From Bacteroidota bacterium (lineage in GTDB: Bacteria; Bacteroidota; Bacteroidia; AKYH767-A; 2013-40CM-41-45), in the NCBI GenBank assembly GCA_003151745.1, contig PLYJ01000124.1:1-46424 (forward strand): a stretch of 46,424 nucleotides of DNA. The letters run 5' to 3'. The position numbers and the translations under genes are program-made. Position 1 is the first letter of the stretch; the number at the start of each line of letters is the position of its first letter. This document shows, one piece after another, positions 19 to 41,567 of this stretch. The notes under the pieces are model-generated. The model was not told where the DNA came from, ran no database searches, and was given only the letters and a program-made list of their open reading frames with translations.

Positions 19-238
19 GTTACCTTTCCCTATTTCGTGGTTACAGCTAACTACATCATGGTTACCTGTCGTTTTACTGTAGTTATCTGTAACTAACGAA
101 TAGTTACCTTTCCCTAAACGGTAGTTACCTGTAATCACATCATGGTTACCTGTCACCATTCCTTAGTTACCTGTAATCATGTAATGGTTACCTTTCCCTA
201 TTTGGTAGTTACCGGTAATCGCGTTGTAGTTACAGGTA
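19..238. repeat. Degenerate tandem array, 21-bp period, ~10.5 units, consensus GTTACCTGTAATCACATCATG / GTTACCTTTCCCTATTTGGTA
   Basis: GTTACCT-like starts at 19,40,61,82,103,124,145,166,187,208,229, exactly 21 bp apart. Confidence 0.95.
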
Positions 239-384: not shown

Positions 385-1716
385 TTACTGAAATAACTCA
401 CCTGCTATTTTATCAGCGAAGAACTTTCCCTTATGTGTAAGCACAAAGTTTTGACTAGCGCCTGTCCCGCTTAATGCGGGATTTTCCACTAAGCCGTCAT
501 TGATATAAGTCGAAACAGTCTTGTAAAAATCCTCCGCAACCTTTTCTCCAAAATCATTTTTAATCTTTTCAAGATTAACACCCCATATCGTGCGCAAAGA
601 AACCATGACGTATTCATTGAATTTTTGCGTTGGCGTAAGTATTTCTTTTTCAAACGGCACGTTGTTTTGTTTTATCGCTTCTATATATTGAGCGTTGTTT
701 CTCACATTCCATTGCCTTGAAGCGCCATCGTACGAATGCGCGGAAGGGCCGAGGCCGAGGTACTTTTTTCCAAGCCAGTAGCTGGTGTTATGCTTTGAGT
801 AGTAAGTAGTATAGTCGGCAGTTGGCAGTTGGCAGTCCGCAGTATGCACGGAATCAGGTGCAGTGCTCACTGGAGACTGTGGACTGTGGACAGTAGACTT
901 TATTCTCGCAAAGTTCGAAATCTCGTATTGCTCGAAACCATTGTCAGCAGCCATTTTCATCAGGATGTCGAATTGCTGTGATGCCTTTTCATCGTCCACA
1001 TTTTTCAGTTTCCCCTTTTTAATAAAATCGGCAAGAGGCGTTCGTTCCTCAACGGTAAGACAATAGCAGGAAAGATGATTGATCGGGAGTGCGAAGGCCG
1101 TTTCCAAGTTTTTAATCCATTGCTCGTTGCTGAGTGTCTGGATTTCATAGATGAGATCAACAGTGATGTTGGTGAATCCGCTGTCGGCAGCTATATACAC
1201 ACATTCATGTGCCTGCGTGCTGTTGTGTGCTCGGTTCATTAATTGCAAATCCACATCTGCAAAGCTTTGTATTCCGATGCTGAGGCGGGTTATTCCTGCT
1301 TCCTTGTACCCAGTTAGTTTTTCTTTTGTGAGGTCGTCGGGGTTGGCCTCCAGTGTTATTTCGGCATCCTTTTCTACTGTGTGGTATTTTCCTATTTCAT
1401 CCAGAATTCTTTTGATTTCATCTGCGGATAGAAGAGATGGAGTGCCTCCGCCGAAGTAGATGGACCTCACCCCCTCAGTCCCCCTCTCCTTGAGGAGAGG
1501 GGGAAGTGGCGCGGAGAGATAGTGCTGCTGTAATGAGATTTCTTTAATAAGCGCTTCGATGAAATCATCTTTTGTTTTGAGCGAGGTTGAAAAATAAAAA
1601 TCACAATAATGACAGGCTTGCTTGCAGAAGGGGATGTGAATGTAGATGCCAAAGCCCCCCTGCCCCCCAAGGTGGGGTATTGAGCTACCATGATGTATTT
1701 TTGTTTGATTGCCCAT
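385..1716 (-). CDS. hemW: HemW-like radical SAM protein (coproporphyrinogen III oxidase-like), with in-frame repeat-derived insertions
   Basis: GIYIHIPFCKQACHYCDF radical-SAM CxxxCxxC motif, IYFGGGTPS, LGLGPSAHS. Confidence 0.9.
   Translation of the reverse strand: MGNQTKIHHGSSIPHLGGQGGFGIYIHIPFCKQACHYCDFYFSTSLKTKDDFIEALIKEISLQQHYLSAPLPPLLKERGTEGVRSIYFGGGTPSLLSADEIKRILDEIGKYHTVEKDAEITLEANPDDLTKEKLTGYKEAGITRLSIGIQSFADVDLQLMNRAHNSTQAHECVYIAADSGFTNITVDLIYEIQTLSNEQWIKNLETAFALPINHLSCYCLTVEERTPLADFIKKGKLKNVDDEKASQQFDILMKMAADNGFEQYEISNFARIKSTVHSPQSPVSTAPDSVHTADCQLPTADYTTYYSKHNTSYWLGKKYLGLGPSAHSYDGASRQWNVRNNAQYIEAIKQNNVPFEKEILTPTQKFNEYVMVSLRTIWGVNLEKIKNDFGEKVAEDFYKTVSTYINDGLVENPALSGTGASQNFVLTHKGKFFADKIAGELFQ
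814..897. repeat. 12 consecutive degenerate heptamers inside hemW
   Basis: gtcggca|gttggca|gttggca|gtccgca|gtatgca|cggaatc|aggtgca|gtgctca|ctggaga|ctgtgga|ctgtgga|cagtaga. Confidence 0.85.
1465..1506. repeat. Palindromic 42-bp heptamer element inside hemW
   Basis: cctcaccccctcagtccccctctccttgaggagagggggaag; similar to the palindrome at 21563-21605. Confidence 0.75.
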
Positions 1717-4150: not shown

Positions 4151-4498
4151 ATGCAAATACAGATATTAAAATCAAAGATTCACAGGGCAACGGTAACGGA
4201 AGCCGACTTAAATTACAAAGGGAGCATTACAATAGATGAAGATCTTATTGAAGGCGCGAACCTGATTGAAAATGAAAAAGTAGAAGTGCTGAACGTTAAC
4301 AACGGAGCGCGTTTCGAAACATACGTGATTAAAGGCAAGCGGGGCAGCGGCCAGATTTGCCTGAATGGCCCTGCTGCAAGACAAGCCTTGGTAGGAGACA
4401 TCATTATTGTAGTTTCTTATGCAACAATGGATTTTGAAGAAGCTAAAAAGTTTAAACCTGCTCTTATTTATCCGAACGCACAGAACAGGCTAAAATAG
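4151..4498 (+). CDS. panD: Aspartate 1-decarboxylase
   Basis: [27 protein letters not shown] cleavage region and [10 protein letters not shown]. Confidence 0.96.
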
Positions 4499-4500
4499 AT

Positions 4501-4600
4501 ATGTGATATGAGTATTGAGATATGAGAAAAGCCGGAATCCTTTATATTTATAGATTCGCCTTTAGTCTAACGTCTCACATCTCATATCTCCCGTCTCAAA
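4501..4600. repeat. Heptamer-type inverted repeat between panD and the next gene
   Basis: atgtgat|atgagta|ttgagat|atgagaa ... gtctcac|atctcat|atctccc|gtctcaa. Confidence 0.6.
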
Positions 4601-6733: not shown

Positions 6734-8110
6734 ATGGCGAAAATTAAAACAGCTTACTTCTGTCAGAACTGCGGAGCGCAATCTGCCAAATGGATTGGCA
6801 ACTGTCCTTCTTGTGGTGAATGGAATACCTATGTGGAAGAAGTAATAAACGCAGGCATTGACAAAAATCAATGGGATAAGCCAATAGATAAAAAGCCCTC
6901 CATCAGTAAGCCTCAAACGCTTGCAGAGATTTCCATTACACAGGATCATCGAATGGCTATTCCAGATAAAGAGCTGCATCGCGTGCTTGGCGGAGGGTTG
7001 GTGTATGGTTCTTTAGTATTGATGGGCGGAGAGCCCGGCATCGGCAAGTCCACATTGCTGTTGCAGCTTGCTTTGAAGCTGAAAGATAAATGTGTGCTTT
7101 ATGTTTCGGGTGAAGAGAGTGAACAACAAATCAAAATGCGTGCAGAGCGGCTTGGTTTGAAGAGCGAGCAATTGTTTGTGCTGACAGAAACATCGCTGCA
7201 AAATATTTTCACCCACATTCAAAAGCTCACGCCCGATCTTCTCATCATTGATTCTATTCAAACTGTACATACCGATGTCATTGAATCATCACCCGGCAGC
7301 GTATCACAGATACGCGAATGTGCTTCTGAATTATTGCGATATGCAAAGCAGACCGCAACTCCCGTTTTCCTGATTGGACATATTACGAAGGATGGTTTGT
7401 TAGCCGGTCCAAAGGTGCTGGAGCACATGGTGGACACGGTATTGCAATTTGAAGGCGACAGACATCATGTGTATCGCATTTTAAGAGCAATGAAAAACCG
7501 TTTCGGTTCTACTGCTGAACTCGGTATATATGAAATGCAGGGTGCAGGATTACGTGAGGTAAGCAATCCGTCAGAAGTTTTAATAACGCATCGTGATGAA
7601 GCATTGAGCGGTGTTGCAGTTGCTGCAACGATGGAAGGCATACGCCCGTTGCTTATTGAAGTGCAAGCATTAGTAAGCTCAGCAGTATATGGCACTCCTC
7701 AACGCACTGCTACAGGCTTTGATTTGCGACGGTTAAGCATGCTGCTTGCTGTGCTTGAAAAACGTTGCGGCTTTCGTCTTGGCGCAAAGGATGTGTTCCT
7801 CAACATTGCCGGAGGCATACGTGTTGAAGATCCTGCTATTGACCTTGCTGTTATATGCGCCGTGCTTTCATCCAATGAAGACCTTCCTGTATCGGCAAAG
7901 AATTGTTTTACTGCCGAAGTAGGATTGAGCGGAGAGATTCGTCCTGTTACACGAATAGACCAATGCATCAGCGAAGCAGAGAAGCTCGGTCTTGAGAAAG
8001 TGTTTATCAGCAAGTACAATCTGAAAGGCCTTGACAAAAAGAGATTTCCTTCGATTGAAATTATTCCTGTGGCAAAGGTGGAGGAAGTGTTCGGAGTACT
8101 TTTTGGTTAG
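6734..8110 (+). CDS. radA: DNA repair protein RadA
   Basis: CQNCGAQSAKWIGNCPSCGEWNT zinc finger, GGEPGIGKSTLLLQ Walker A, KNRFGSTAELGIYEM. Confidence 0.97.
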   Translation: MAKIKTAYFCQNCGAQSAKWIGNCPSCGEWNTYVEEVINAGIDKNQWDKPIDKKPSISKPQTLAEISITQDHRMAIPDKELHRVLGGGLVYGSLVLMGGEPGIGKSTLLLQLALKLKDKCVLYVSGEESEQQIKMRAERLGLKSEQLFVLTETSLQNIFTHIQKLTPDLLIIDSIQTVHTDVIESSPGSVSQIRECASELLRYAKQTATPVFLIGHITKDGLLAGPKVLEHMVDTVLQFEGDRHHVYRILRAMKNRFGSTAELGIYEMQGAGLREVSNPSEVLITHRDEALSGVAVAATMEGIRPLLIEVQALVSSAVYGTPQRTATGFDLRRLSMLLAVLEKRCGFRLGAKDVFLNIAGGIRVEDPAIDLAVICAVLSSNEDLPVSAKNCFTAEVGLSGEIRPVTRIDQCISEAEKLGLEKVFISKYNLKGLDKKRFPSIEIIPVAKVEEVFGVLFG

Positions 8111-8124
8111 TTAAAAATACTGAA

Positions 8125-8182
8125 AGTTGCAGTAAGCAGTGGCACTAAGCAAGACTGCACTCTGCCACTGCTTACTGCAACT
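8125..8182. terminator. Perfect 20-bp inverted repeat between convergent genes; candidate bidirectional terminator
   Basis: agttgcagtaagcagtggca (18-nt loop) tgccactgcttactgcaact. Confidence 0.7.
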
Positions 8183-8185
8183 TGA

Positions 8186-9568
8186 TTACTTCATCCCCAT
8201 TTTCTCTTTCCACATTTCGTTGAAAGACTTAGGTGCAACGCGCGGCAACTCTCTTCGCGAGCCCCATTGCGTTTTAAAAAAGTTTTGAAGAATAAAATTC
8301 TTCCCTTTCGCTCCGCCTTTGTTCATGAGCTTGCGGCTAAGCATGGCTTTCTTCCAGAAAGTAAATGTCCACCGTTCCGTTTTAGTCGGAATTCCTTCCT
8401 TCACACTATCACGGCGGTTAAAGAGAAGATGCTTATGCAATTCAATCTTCACAGGGCATACTTCCGTGCATTTGCCGCAAAGCGATGAAGCATAGCTTAG
8501 ATGACGGAACTCCTCCATGCCTCTTAAGTGCGGAGTGATCACAGAACCAATGGGGCCGCTGTAAGTAGTACCATACGCATGGCCTCCGACACCTTTATAT
8601 ATAGGACAACCGTTCAAACACGCACCGCAGCGAATGCAGGCAAGCGCTTCACGCTGCTGCTCCTGTGCAAGCAATTCTGTTCTGCCATTGTCAAGCAGGA
8701 CAACGTACATTTCTTCCGGGCCATCTTTCTCATCCGGTTGGCGCGGGCCGGTCATGATGCTGTTGTAAACCGTAACGTTCTGCCCCGTGCCATGCGTGGC
8801 AAGCAGCGGCCAGAAGAGGTCAAGATCAGTAAGCGATGGAATTAATTTCTCAATGCCTGCAATGGCAATATGCACTTTTGGAAAAGCGACGCTCATAAAA
8901 GCATTGCCTTCATTCTCCGTAACTGCTATAGCGCCTGTGTCAGCAATAAGGAAGTTAGCGCCCGTTATCCCCGCTTCCGCCACCTGGTATTTTGCACGCA
9001 GGCGGTTTCTCACCCACAACGTTATCTCCTGTGGAGTGCTGCTAGGTGGCAGGCCAAATTTCTCATTAAATGTTTTTGCAACATCCTCCTTGCTCAAATG
9101 CATAGCAGGCGTTACGATATGATAGGGCGGCTCATCGCGTTGCTGCACGATGAATTCACCAAGATCAGTCTCTACGGATTCAATCCCTGCCTTTTCTAAA
9201 TTCTGGTTCAGGTGCACCTCTTCCGTAGTCATGCTCTTGCTCTTGACAACCATTTTGCAATCTACCCTCTTGAGAATGGCAACGATTTCACGAATGGCTT
9301 CATCGGCATCCTGTGCCCAGATCACTTTTCCTCCGCGCTTGATAAAGTTTGCCTCAAACTCGATGAGGTACTTGTCCATGTTCTCAATCACCTTGCGCTT
9401 GAGGGCTGCAGCGCGCAATTTGGCAGTTTCGAGATCCGCATACTGGTGCTTTCCGTCAATCACTTTCTTGTCATACTGCGCGATGTTGAAAGCAAGCTTG
9501 CGCCGGTGTTCCGGGTCGAACACTTTTACTTCCGAATCATCTAAAAATTTATCTGACTGTAGAGACAT
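8186..9568 (-). CDS. LutB/YkgF-type iron-sulfur lactate utilization protein
   Basis: CIRCGACLNGCPIYKGVGGHAYG and CGKCTEVCPVKIELHKHLL. Confidence 0.92.
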   Translation of the reverse strand: MSLQSDKFLDDSEVKVFDPEHRRKLAFNIAQYDKKVIDGKHQYADLETAKLRAAALKRKVIENMDKYLIEFEANFIKRGGKVIWAQDADEAIREIVAILKRVDCKMVVKSKSMTTEEVHLNQNLEKAGIESVETDLGEFIVQQRDEPPYHIVTPAMHLSKEDVAKTFNEKFGLPPSSTPQEITLWVRNRLRAKYQVAEAGITGANFLIADTGAIAVTENEGNAFMSVAFPKVHIAIAGIEKLIPSLTDLDLFWPLLATHGTGQNVTVYNSIMTGPRQPDEKDGPEEMYVVLLDNGRTELLAQEQQREALACIRCGACLNGCPIYKGVGGHAYGTTYSGPIGSVITPHLRGMEEFRHLSYASSLCGKCTEVCPVKIELHKHLLFNRRDSVKEGIPTKTERWTFTFWKKAMLSRKLMNKGGAKGKNFILQNFFKTQWGSRRELPRVAPKSFNEMWKEKMGMK

Positions 9569-13880: not shown

Positions 13881-14153
13881 GCGACACACCATTTTGTTGT
13901 GGTGGCGTAACGCCTTTATGAAGCGACGCACCATTTCATTGTGGTGGCGCATCACTCTCATGAAGCGATGCACCATTTTATCGTGGCGACGCATCACTTT
14001 CATGAAGCGGCATGCCATTTTATTGTGGTGGTGCATCACTTTTATGAAGCAACACACCATTTCATTGTGGTGACGCGTAACTTCATTATGGCGACGCACT
14101 GCTTCATCGTGGTGACGCACCACTTTTATGTGGTGGTGCACCGTTTTTGCGTG
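13881..14153. repeat. Degenerate tandem array, 21-bp period, 13 units, alternating GCGACGCACCATTTCATTGTG / GTGGCGCATCACTTTCATGAA
   Basis: Units parse at exactly 21-bp spacing from 13881 to 14153; the two sub-consensuses largely alternate (42-bp higher order). Confidence 0.95.
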
Positions 14154-14465
14154 GTTTTGCTGTTTTGTAATGAAAAAAGGGGATTCCACTTATGTTAAGG
14201 GGCAATTATTGCAATTTTTGAACACCCTTACCGGATGATGGCTTTGTTTTACTTTAAATCATTTTGGCCAAACAAGAATTGTCAGAAATTCCTTTTATAA
14301 AAACGCAGGAATACAGATTATCGCAACTCCCAATTGTGTTAATCTGCAATAAGTGTGTTGTATTAACGAACTTTTTGTAGGTTTGATTTCGTTAATATAA
14401 ATAGTATGGGCAATTTTAGCGCAACTAACTAACAGTATCGGTAATTTGAAAGTGTGTAATTCATT

Positions 14466-29837: not shown

Positions 29838-29920
29838 GAAACATCCCTTTTAATAGTCCTTACTATACATGATTTGTATTGATTTGGTGCAAAAAAACGC
29901 AATAGTTAAGCAAAAATCAT

Positions 29921-30150
29921 GAGTAACTCTATCGAAATCACTCATAACTCTGTTGAAATGATGGCTAACTTTATCAAAATCACCCATAACGCTGTTGAAG
30001 CGATGGCTGACTCTTTCGAATTCACTTATAAACTGATGAAGTAACGGGTGACTCTACCGAAATCACCCATAACCCTGATGAAGTTATGGCTAACTCTATC
30101 GAATTCACTCATAACTCTGATGAAGTTATGGGTGATTCTGTTGAATTCAT
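29921..30150. repeat. Degenerate tandem array, 21-bp period, 11 units, alternating GGCTAACTCTATCGAATTCAC / TCATAACTCTGATGAAGTTAT
   Basis: 21-bp units at 29921,29942,29963,29984,30005,30026(20 bp),30046,30067,30088,30109,30130; clear 42-bp A/B alternation. Confidence 0.95.
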
Positions 30151-31323: not shown

Positions 31324-31384
31324 GGGGAGTTGGGAGTAGGGAGACGGAGGTGCGAACCCCGCTTCCTACTCCTCACTCCCTACT
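31324..31384. repeat. Heptamer-type inverted repeat
   Basis: ggggagttgggagtaggga ... cttcctactcctcactccctact. Confidence 0.7.
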
Positions 31385-31387
31385 TAT

Positions 31388-31990
31388 TCACAAAAGTATC
31401 TTTTTGAAAGAAAACCCCTTCGAAGAGAAATATTCCAACATCTTAGGAAGCGCATACTGCAATCTGTCGAATGCTTTTATATTATCGTGAAAAACAATAA
31501 TTGATCCGGGCTTTGCTTTGGTTAGCACTCTTTGCAAGCATTGTTCCCCTGTCATTGCTTTATCGTAATCTTTACTCAGAACATCCCACATCACAATCTT
31601 GTATTGAGATTTGAGATTTGAGATTTGAGATAGCCTTAGCTTTCCATACGGTGGGCGGAACAGGTTTGATGGAAGCAAAGCGTTTGTTTTTTCAATATCA
31701 TCTATATAAATATCGTTCTTCGTTTTCCAGCCATTAAGATGATGATAGGTGTGATTGCCGACGGCATGTCCTTCATCTATGATGCGTTGAAAAACATTGG
31801 GGTGCTTGTTTATGTTTTCACCGACACAGAAAAAAGTTGCCTTGGCATTGTATTGTTTTAATAAATCCAGTACGTAGGGTGTAACTTTCGGAACAGGTCC
31901 ATCATCAAACGTGAGATAGAGGAAGTCTGTTTCCGCAGAAATGTCCCACACCAAAGAAGGAAAAAACGTTTTGCCGAGCGTGGTAAGCAA
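31388..31990 (-). CDS. Polysaccharide deacetylase family protein
   Basis: YLTFDDGPVPKVTPYVLDLL, GHAVGNHTYHH, LFRPPYGKL, KIVMWDVLSKDYD. Confidence 0.93.
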   Translation of the reverse strand: MLTTLGKTFFPSLVWDISAETDFLYLTFDDGPVPKVTPYVLDLLKQYNAKATFFCVGENINKHPNVFQRIIDEGHAVGNHTYHHLNGWKTKNDIYIDDIEKTNALLPSNLFRPPYGKLRLSQISNLKSQYKIVMWDVLSKDYDKAMTGEQCLQRVLTKAKPGSIIVFHDNIKAFDRLQYALPKMLEYFSSKGFSFKKILL

Positions 31991-41252: not shown

Positions 41253-41294
41253 TTGGGCAGCTGCTTTGAAAGAACGACCGGACGTTTCAACGAG

Positions 41295-41567
41295 GCGGCA
41301 TTACACCACGATGAAACGGCATACCACTCCATCAAGGCGGCATACCGTTTTGACGAAGCGGTGCACCACTTCAACGTGGCGGCATACCATCTCAACGAGG
41401 CGTCGCACCACTACCATAAGGCGACTGACCATCTCACCGAAGCGACACGCCACTTCAACAAGGCGGTGCGTAACCACAACGCGGCGGTGCACCACTTTTG
41501 TAAGGCGGTGCGTAACCACGACGAAGTGACGCACCACTTTTTGGTGGTGGTGCACCGTTTTTGGGGT
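41295..41567. repeat. Degenerate tandem array, 21-bp period, 13 units, consensus GCGGYGCACCACTTCAACGAR
   Basis: Units at exactly 21-bp spacing from 41295; related to the array at 13881-14153. Confidence 0.95.

What the first reader, a model, noticed from the sequence alone, without database searches (positions are those of the whole stretch)
814..897. Twelve consecutive heptamers inserted in frame into hemW
84 bp of 7-bp-period DNA encode STVHSPQSPVSTAPDSVHTADCQLPTAD between NFA(R/K) and YSKHNTSYW, a junction normally compact in HemW. 84 = 12x7 = 28 codons, so the element could insert without breaking the frame. Similar heptamer DNA otherwise lies between genes here.
Basis: partly seen in the sequence, partly recalled or inferred. 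Interest (0 to 1): 0.68.

Follow-up and report, generated by a model that had tools for sequence, protein, structure and literature searches.

The report
Palindromic DNA element inside hemW gene
A short hairpin-forming DNA element that is scattered over this bacterium's genome sits in frame inside hemW and several other genes, where it is predicted to add a floppy 31-residue loop to HemW; this resembles the gene-invading palindromes of Rickettsia but occurs in a different phylum, with an element made of seven-base units.

Summary
The insert is real and lineage-specific. The HemW loop between YEISNFA and SKHN is 5 aa in 50 of 51 Bacteroidota relatives (6 in one) and 36 aa here, a gain of 31 aa (93 bp). 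It is not a run of twelve tandem heptamers. It is one copy (812-900) of an 89-bp dispersed palindrome: AAGTNNN(CAGTNNN)x4, a core, then the mirrored arm ending ACTT. That is six heptamers, a 5-nt centre and six inverted heptamers, with CAGT tetrads kept and triads free. The genome holds about 43 copies at E<=1e-5. Most lie directly after stop codons; several lie in frame inside other genes. CapD gains the same 31 aa, MnmG 21 aa from a solo arm, Ddl-like and SDR proteins 17 each. AlphaFold2 keeps the HemW core confident and the insert disordered. Best reading: a non-autonomous MITE/REPIN-like palindrome behaving like Rickettsia palindromic elements, with in-frame copies kept where a loop tolerates them. 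The mobilising enzyme is unknown: no target duplication was found and the link to Y1 transposases is weak. Related CAGTNNN-armed palindromes with other cores occur elsewhere in the class (35 of 395 genomes match). New variant of a known kind.

The parts
385..1716 (-). hemW ORF, 443 aa, host gene of the insert
   Evidence: Radical_SAM and HemN_C Pfam matches; 33-64% identity to 35 relatives; best solved-structure match HemN 1olt
812..900 (.). 89-bp palindromic heptamer element (full-length copy)
   Evidence: 51/57 fixed template positions, null maximum 30; model R1 match to 813-900 at 1.7e-18 (this copy is in the model's training set)
812..843 (+). left arm: TAGT/CAGT tetrads at 7-bp steps (five tetrads, four triads)
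844..868 (.). core of 25 bp with a 5-nt centre
869..900 (+). right, inverted arm: ACTG tetrads at 7-bp steps ending ACTT (one tetrad is ACAG)
805..897 (-). 31 codons gained relative to homologues (STVHSPQSPVSTAPDSVHTADCQLPTADYTT); best placement of the net +93 bp, which cannot be fixed to the base
   Evidence: loop of 5 aa in 50/51 relatives; placement computed

Best explanation
The hemW insert is one copy of a genome-wide family of 89-bp non-autonomous palindromic elements. Shown: the fixed architecture, the dispersed copies, the concentration just after stop codons, and in-frame copies in several conserved genes. Inferred: an enzyme acting in trans recognises the hairpin and/or its 7-bp-spaced CAGT/ACTG tetrads and copies or moves the element. 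Insertions inside genes survive only when the net change is a multiple of three and the site is a loop, linker or N-terminus. In hemW the copy was fixed as a translated, probably disordered 31-residue loop that the enzyme tolerates. It behaves like a Rickettsia palindromic element but is built differently, from tetrad-triad heptamers.
For: Loop +31 aa against 51 relatives. Copies share an 89-bp gap-free architecture with AAGT...ACTT ends; about 43 places at E<=1e-5, 24 of them used to train the model; 62 two-armed matches against 0 in the reversed control. In-frame copies in CapD (+31 aa in every relative matched on both sides), MnmG (+21 in most), Ddl-like (+17 in most) and SDR (+17 in most) proteins, a histidine-kinase linker and two N-termini. 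23 of 30 gene-facing ends lie within -3..+15 bp of a stop codon. Strong hairpins on the + strand and in sister copies (z -4.5 to -10.4), weaker on the hemW coding strand (z -2.6). AlphaFold2: HemW core confident, residues 280-302 of the insert below pLDDT 50.
Against: No target-site duplication. No relative closer than about 65% identity is held, so no empty site is shown at DNA level. 89-bp element against 93-bp net gain leaves 4 bp unexplained. SDR gained only 51 bp from a full copy, so some target sequence was also lost or replaced there. No mobilising enzyme is identified. No transcript or peptide data.
Confidence: 0.78

Rival explanations
1. In-situ growth: the heptamers in hemW arose by replication slippage of a local seed, not by arrival of an element.
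For: Arms are made of 7-bp units; some loci hold single arms, and arm number varies between copies.
Against: Slippage would homogenise whole units, but tetrads are kept while triads differ. It does not make an inverted second arm, a shared core and AAGT...ACTT ends at about 43 unrelated places.
Confidence: 0.07
2. Adaptive domestication: the element in hemW, or copies in general, are kept for a function (transcription termination or mRNA 3' ends between genes; a regulatory or interaction loop inside proteins).
For: Copies sit right after stop codons and between convergent genes and fold as strong hairpins.
Against: The protein loop is predicted disordered; intergenic copies show no excess of open frames; triads do not covary between arms. 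Position after stop codons is also expected of neutral insertions that avoid genes.
Confidence: 0.2
3. The mobilising enzyme is a Y1/HUH (RAYT-like) transposase, so the family is a REPIN.
For: Seven Y1_Tnp matches, one with a copy about 170 bp upstream; no target duplication; Y1_Tnp in 30/35 element-positive against 230/360 negative genomes, p 0.006.
Against: Element-positive, well-assembled genomes without Y1_Tnp exist (G359, G366); the other Y1 genes have no copy nearby; the association is not controlled for relatedness or genome size.
Confidence: 0.3
4. Assembly or binning artefact: the insert is chimeric, or the contig belongs to another organism.
For: Draft genome of 279 contigs with 6.8% estimated contamination.
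Against: Copies differ in sequence, lie inside contigs and keep frames open; CapD shows the same 31-aa gain; HemW is closest to a genome of the same family (G002, 64%).
Confidence: 0.03

Closest known systems
Rickettsia palindromic elements (RPE) and related protein-coding palindromes
   Same: Dispersed small palindromes with terminal inverted repeats, intergenic and also in frame inside conserved protein genes, tolerated by the product (PMC2229807, PMC10969869)
   Different: 89 bp instead of about 105-150; arms of tetrad-triad heptamers; a Bacteroidota host; no comparison with RPE sequences was made here; most copies lie next to stop codons
REPs / REPINs with RAYT (Y1) transposases
   Same: Short dispersed palindromes carrying a tetranucleotide motif; no target duplication seen; Y1 transposase genes in the genome
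   Different: Tag is CAGT/AAGT repeated every 7 bp, not GTAG or CGTC (PMC3733652); elements also found in genomes without Y1_Tnp
TAACTGA and other heptamer repeats of Beggiatoaceae, Cyanobacteria and Bacteroidetes
   Same: 7-bp period; ACTG is part of TAACTGA; mostly intergenic, sometimes in ORFs (PMC4679880)
   Different: Those are direct repeats of one exact heptamer, typically before start codons in the genome studied most; here the triads are free, the arms are inverted around a core, and copies follow stop codons
MITEs (ERIC, Correia/NEMIS, RUP)
   Same: Small non-autonomous inverted-repeat elements, some of which fuse in frame with genes (PMC2229807)
   Different: No target duplication and no parent transposon found

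Membership tests
Rickettsia palindromic element (works like) | Dispersed palindrome with terminal inverted repeats, many copies per genome | tested here: met
   About 43 places at E<=1e-5, AAGT...ACTT ends
Rickettsia palindromic element (works like) | In-frame insertion in several unrelated conserved genes | tested here: met
   HemW, CapD, MnmG (solo arm), Ddl-like, SDR
Rickettsia palindromic element (member of) | Sequence similarity to an RPE family | not tested
   No RPE sequence was compared; membership is not claimed
REPIN / REP with RAYT | GTAG or CGTC tag at one end of the palindrome (the two super-families of PMC3733652) | tested here: not met
   Conserved ends are AAGT...ACTT and the internal tetrads are CAGT/ACTG
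REPIN / REP with RAYT | Linked Y1 (RAYT) transposase gene | tested here: inconclusive
   One of seven Y1_Tnp places has a copy about 170 bp away; Y1_Tnp is absent from some element-positive genomes
MITE | Target-site duplication | tested here: not met
   No excess of flanking direct repeats in 15 copies with intact ends
MITE | Parent transposon with the same terminal repeats | not tested
   Only Y1_Tnp was searched for as a source
TAACTGA heptamer repeats | Direct repeats of the exact heptamer TAACTGA | tested here: not met
   Triads vary (35 kinds seen; CTT, TGG and CGG commonest) and the arms are inverted

The most novel reading that the evidence does not exclude
A superfamily of heptad-armed palindromes across this Bacteroidota class (fixed CAGT tetrads at 7-bp steps, free triads, lineage-specific cores) spreads by a mechanism that reads the 7-bp tetrad array itself, and recurrently donates translated, frame-neutral segments to core enzymes.
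Probability: 0.25. Interest if true: 0.75.

Novelty: new variant of a known kind. Interest (0 to 1): 0.55.

Why it matters
In-frame invasion of conserved genes by palindromic DNA is best known from Rickettsia. If confirmed, this shows the same process in a different phylum, in enzymes such as HemW, MnmG and CapD, with an element whose period (7) runs through all three reading frames. It would give a system for asking how palindromes spread without a visible transposase and how proteins absorb foreign 31-residue loops. It also warns annotators that such repeats can be real coding sequence.

Tried and rejected
Covariation of triads between arms: tested, not found (variable positions pair at 0.36 observed, 0.38 shuffled). 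Target-site duplication: tested over lags 84-100, none enriched. Stop-avoidance: copies outside genes have open frames at about shuffle level (0.75 and 0.58 per strand against 0.59 and 0.61), so there is no sign that the element is tuned to be translated; gene-internal copies are a selected subset. HemL has a heptamer run (C208) but no length change against a solved homologue, so it was not counted. Secretion-domain-like proteins sharing QSIVISLQSAVN (C8, C9, C43, C67, C110) look like paralogous copies of one region and were not counted as independent insertions. A methyltransferase with a solo arm (C88) gave mixed lengths in relatives and was not counted; a solo arm in an SMC-like coiled coil (C47) was not tested. 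The 84-bp frame argument was rejected.

Full report
Observation. The window's first gene on the minus strand (385-1716) is an intact 443-aa HemW with Radical_SAM and HemN_C domains. Between YEISNFA and SKHNTSYW it has 36 residues. In 51 relatives from two searches the same loop has 5 residues in 50 and 6 in one. A 36-sequence alignment shows the same gap in all 35 relatives aligned. The net gain is 31 aa or 93 bp. The frame is open, and the CxxxCxxC motif and the other columns invariant in the alignment are kept.

What the DNA is. Counting AGT at 7-bp steps on one side and ACT on the other shows two inverted arms around a core. A gap-free 89-bp template, AAGTNNN(CAGTNNN)x4 with core NNGCANNGAATAAACTTCNNTGCNN and the mirrored right arm, matches the hemW copy at 51 of 57 fixed positions; the best score in shuffled loci is 30. 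Twenty-four copies align without gaps. Fixed positions average 76% identity between copies and variable positions 38%; the triads come from a skewed set, CTT, TGG and CGG commonest. The element is thus 6 heptamers, 5 nt, 6 inverted heptamers, ending AAGT...ACTT, and the hemW copy occupies 812-900.

How many and where. A sequence model of the 24 copies finds about 43 distinct places at E<=1e-5 in the 4.6-Mb genome (the 24 training copies match by construction). More partial or single-arm places follow at weaker E-values. A two-armed pattern gives 62 matches against 0 for the reversed control (one element can give several overlapping matches); among the ten other genomes of the family it gives only 2, both in G003. 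In 395 genomes of the class, the window's own included, 35 match at E<=1e-6. The eleven loci inspected from ten or so of these have CAGTNNN arms around other cores. The exact 89-bp family therefore looks lineage-specific, while the heptad-armed design is wider.

Position. Most copies lie between genes. Of 30 element ends that have a facing gene 3' end within 60 bp, 23 lie from -3 to +15 bp of the stop codon (binomial p about 2e-13 against a uniform spread in that range). Several fill the whole gap between convergent genes. This fits either a terminator-like role or simple tolerance of insertion there.

Copies inside genes. In-frame copies lie in HemW; in a CapD-type NDP-sugar dehydratase (C111), where relatives matched on both sides lack 31 aa; in a Ddl-like ligase (C239, truncated copy, about +17 aa); in an SDR dehydrogenase (C16, about +17 aa from a full copy, so some target sequence was lost or replaced); in the linker of a hybrid histidine kinase (C118); and in the N-termini of a DUF4835 protein (C257) and a sensor-like protein (C67). 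A solo arm adds about 21 aa to MnmG (C53). The gains were read from match coordinates and hold for most relatives, not all. No copy was seen that splits a gene, as selection would predict, but this was judged only from ORFs of at least 100 codons near the element. Copies outside genes are not unusually free of stops, so the element itself does not look adapted to being translated.

Effect on HemW. AlphaFold2 on the alignment gives mean pLDDT 87. Only residues 1-18 and 280-302 form stretches below 50, and the insert lies between strand 268-272 and helix 308-314. The best solved match is HemN 1olt. The likely outcome is an active enzyme with a disordered loop; activity was not tested.

Mechanism. 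No target-site duplication was found, and the copies tested fold strongly as single strands. Both fit a single-strand HUH transposase such as Y1/RAYT. Seven Y1_Tnp matches exist and one has a copy about 170 bp upstream. Across the class Y1_Tnp is more common in element-positive genomes (30/35 against 230/360, p about 0.006, not controlled for relatedness or genome size), but well-assembled positive genomes without Y1_Tnp exist. I rate mobilisation in trans as likely and this enzyme as a candidate only.

Comparison. It works like Rickettsia palindromic elements: dispersed palindromes, in frame in conserved genes (PMC2229807, PMC10969869). It is not claimed as a member, since no RPE sequence was compared. 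It fails the GTAG/CGTC tag of the REP super-families of PMC3733652 and the exact-heptamer definition of TAACTGA repeats (PMC4679880), with which it shares the ACTG tetrad and the 7-bp step. Searches of the held literature found no description of this family, but most subscription papers are not held.

Noticed in passing
window 1456-1520, 1641-1690, 436-500 (hemW): hemW has three more inserts or extensions absent from nearly all aligned relatives, each built on a different palindrome: about 11 aa (LPPLLKERGTEG; CCCCTCTCCTTGAGGAGAGGGG), an N-terminal extension (PHLGGQGGF; GC-rich) and 7 aa near the C-terminus (LSGTGAS; CCCGCATTAAGCGGG). The first has only two weak sister matches in the genome.
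   Followed up: partly
window 8122-8184: A second CAGTNNN-type palindrome (AAGTTGCAGTAAGCAGT...ACTGCTTACTGCAACTT) without the 89-bp core fills the gap between the stop codons of convergent ORFs 6734-8110(+) and 8186-9568(-).
   Followed up: partly
window 31325-31385 and 4497-4598; L133:5516-5598, L148:1079-1147, L156:1507-1583: Heptamer-armed palindromes of sister types, with other tetrads or units (GAGTNNG, AAGTTCA, GAGATAT-like), suggest several subfamilies of the same design.
   Followed up: no
window 31604-31631: Four perfect tandem TTGAGAT heptamers lie inside an ORF (31388-31990, minus strand), possibly another in-frame heptamer insert.
   Followed up: no
window 19-220, 13881-14155, 29914-30139, 41286-41541: Four long arrays with 21/42-bp period (multiples of 7), each with its own unit sequence, apparently between genes.
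   Followed up: no
L165:1305-1393 and L166:1296-1384 (G000 C58 and C107): Two near-identical Y1 transposase genes share downstream DNA with small hairpins of their own (CACCGTAGGTG, CCACCATAGGTGG), possibly an IS200-like or RAYT element with its own ends.
   Followed up: no
G042 and other genomes of the class (L244-L254): Distantly related genomes carry CAGTNNN-armed palindromes with unrelated cores; G042 gives 74 two-armed pattern matches.
   Followed up: partly
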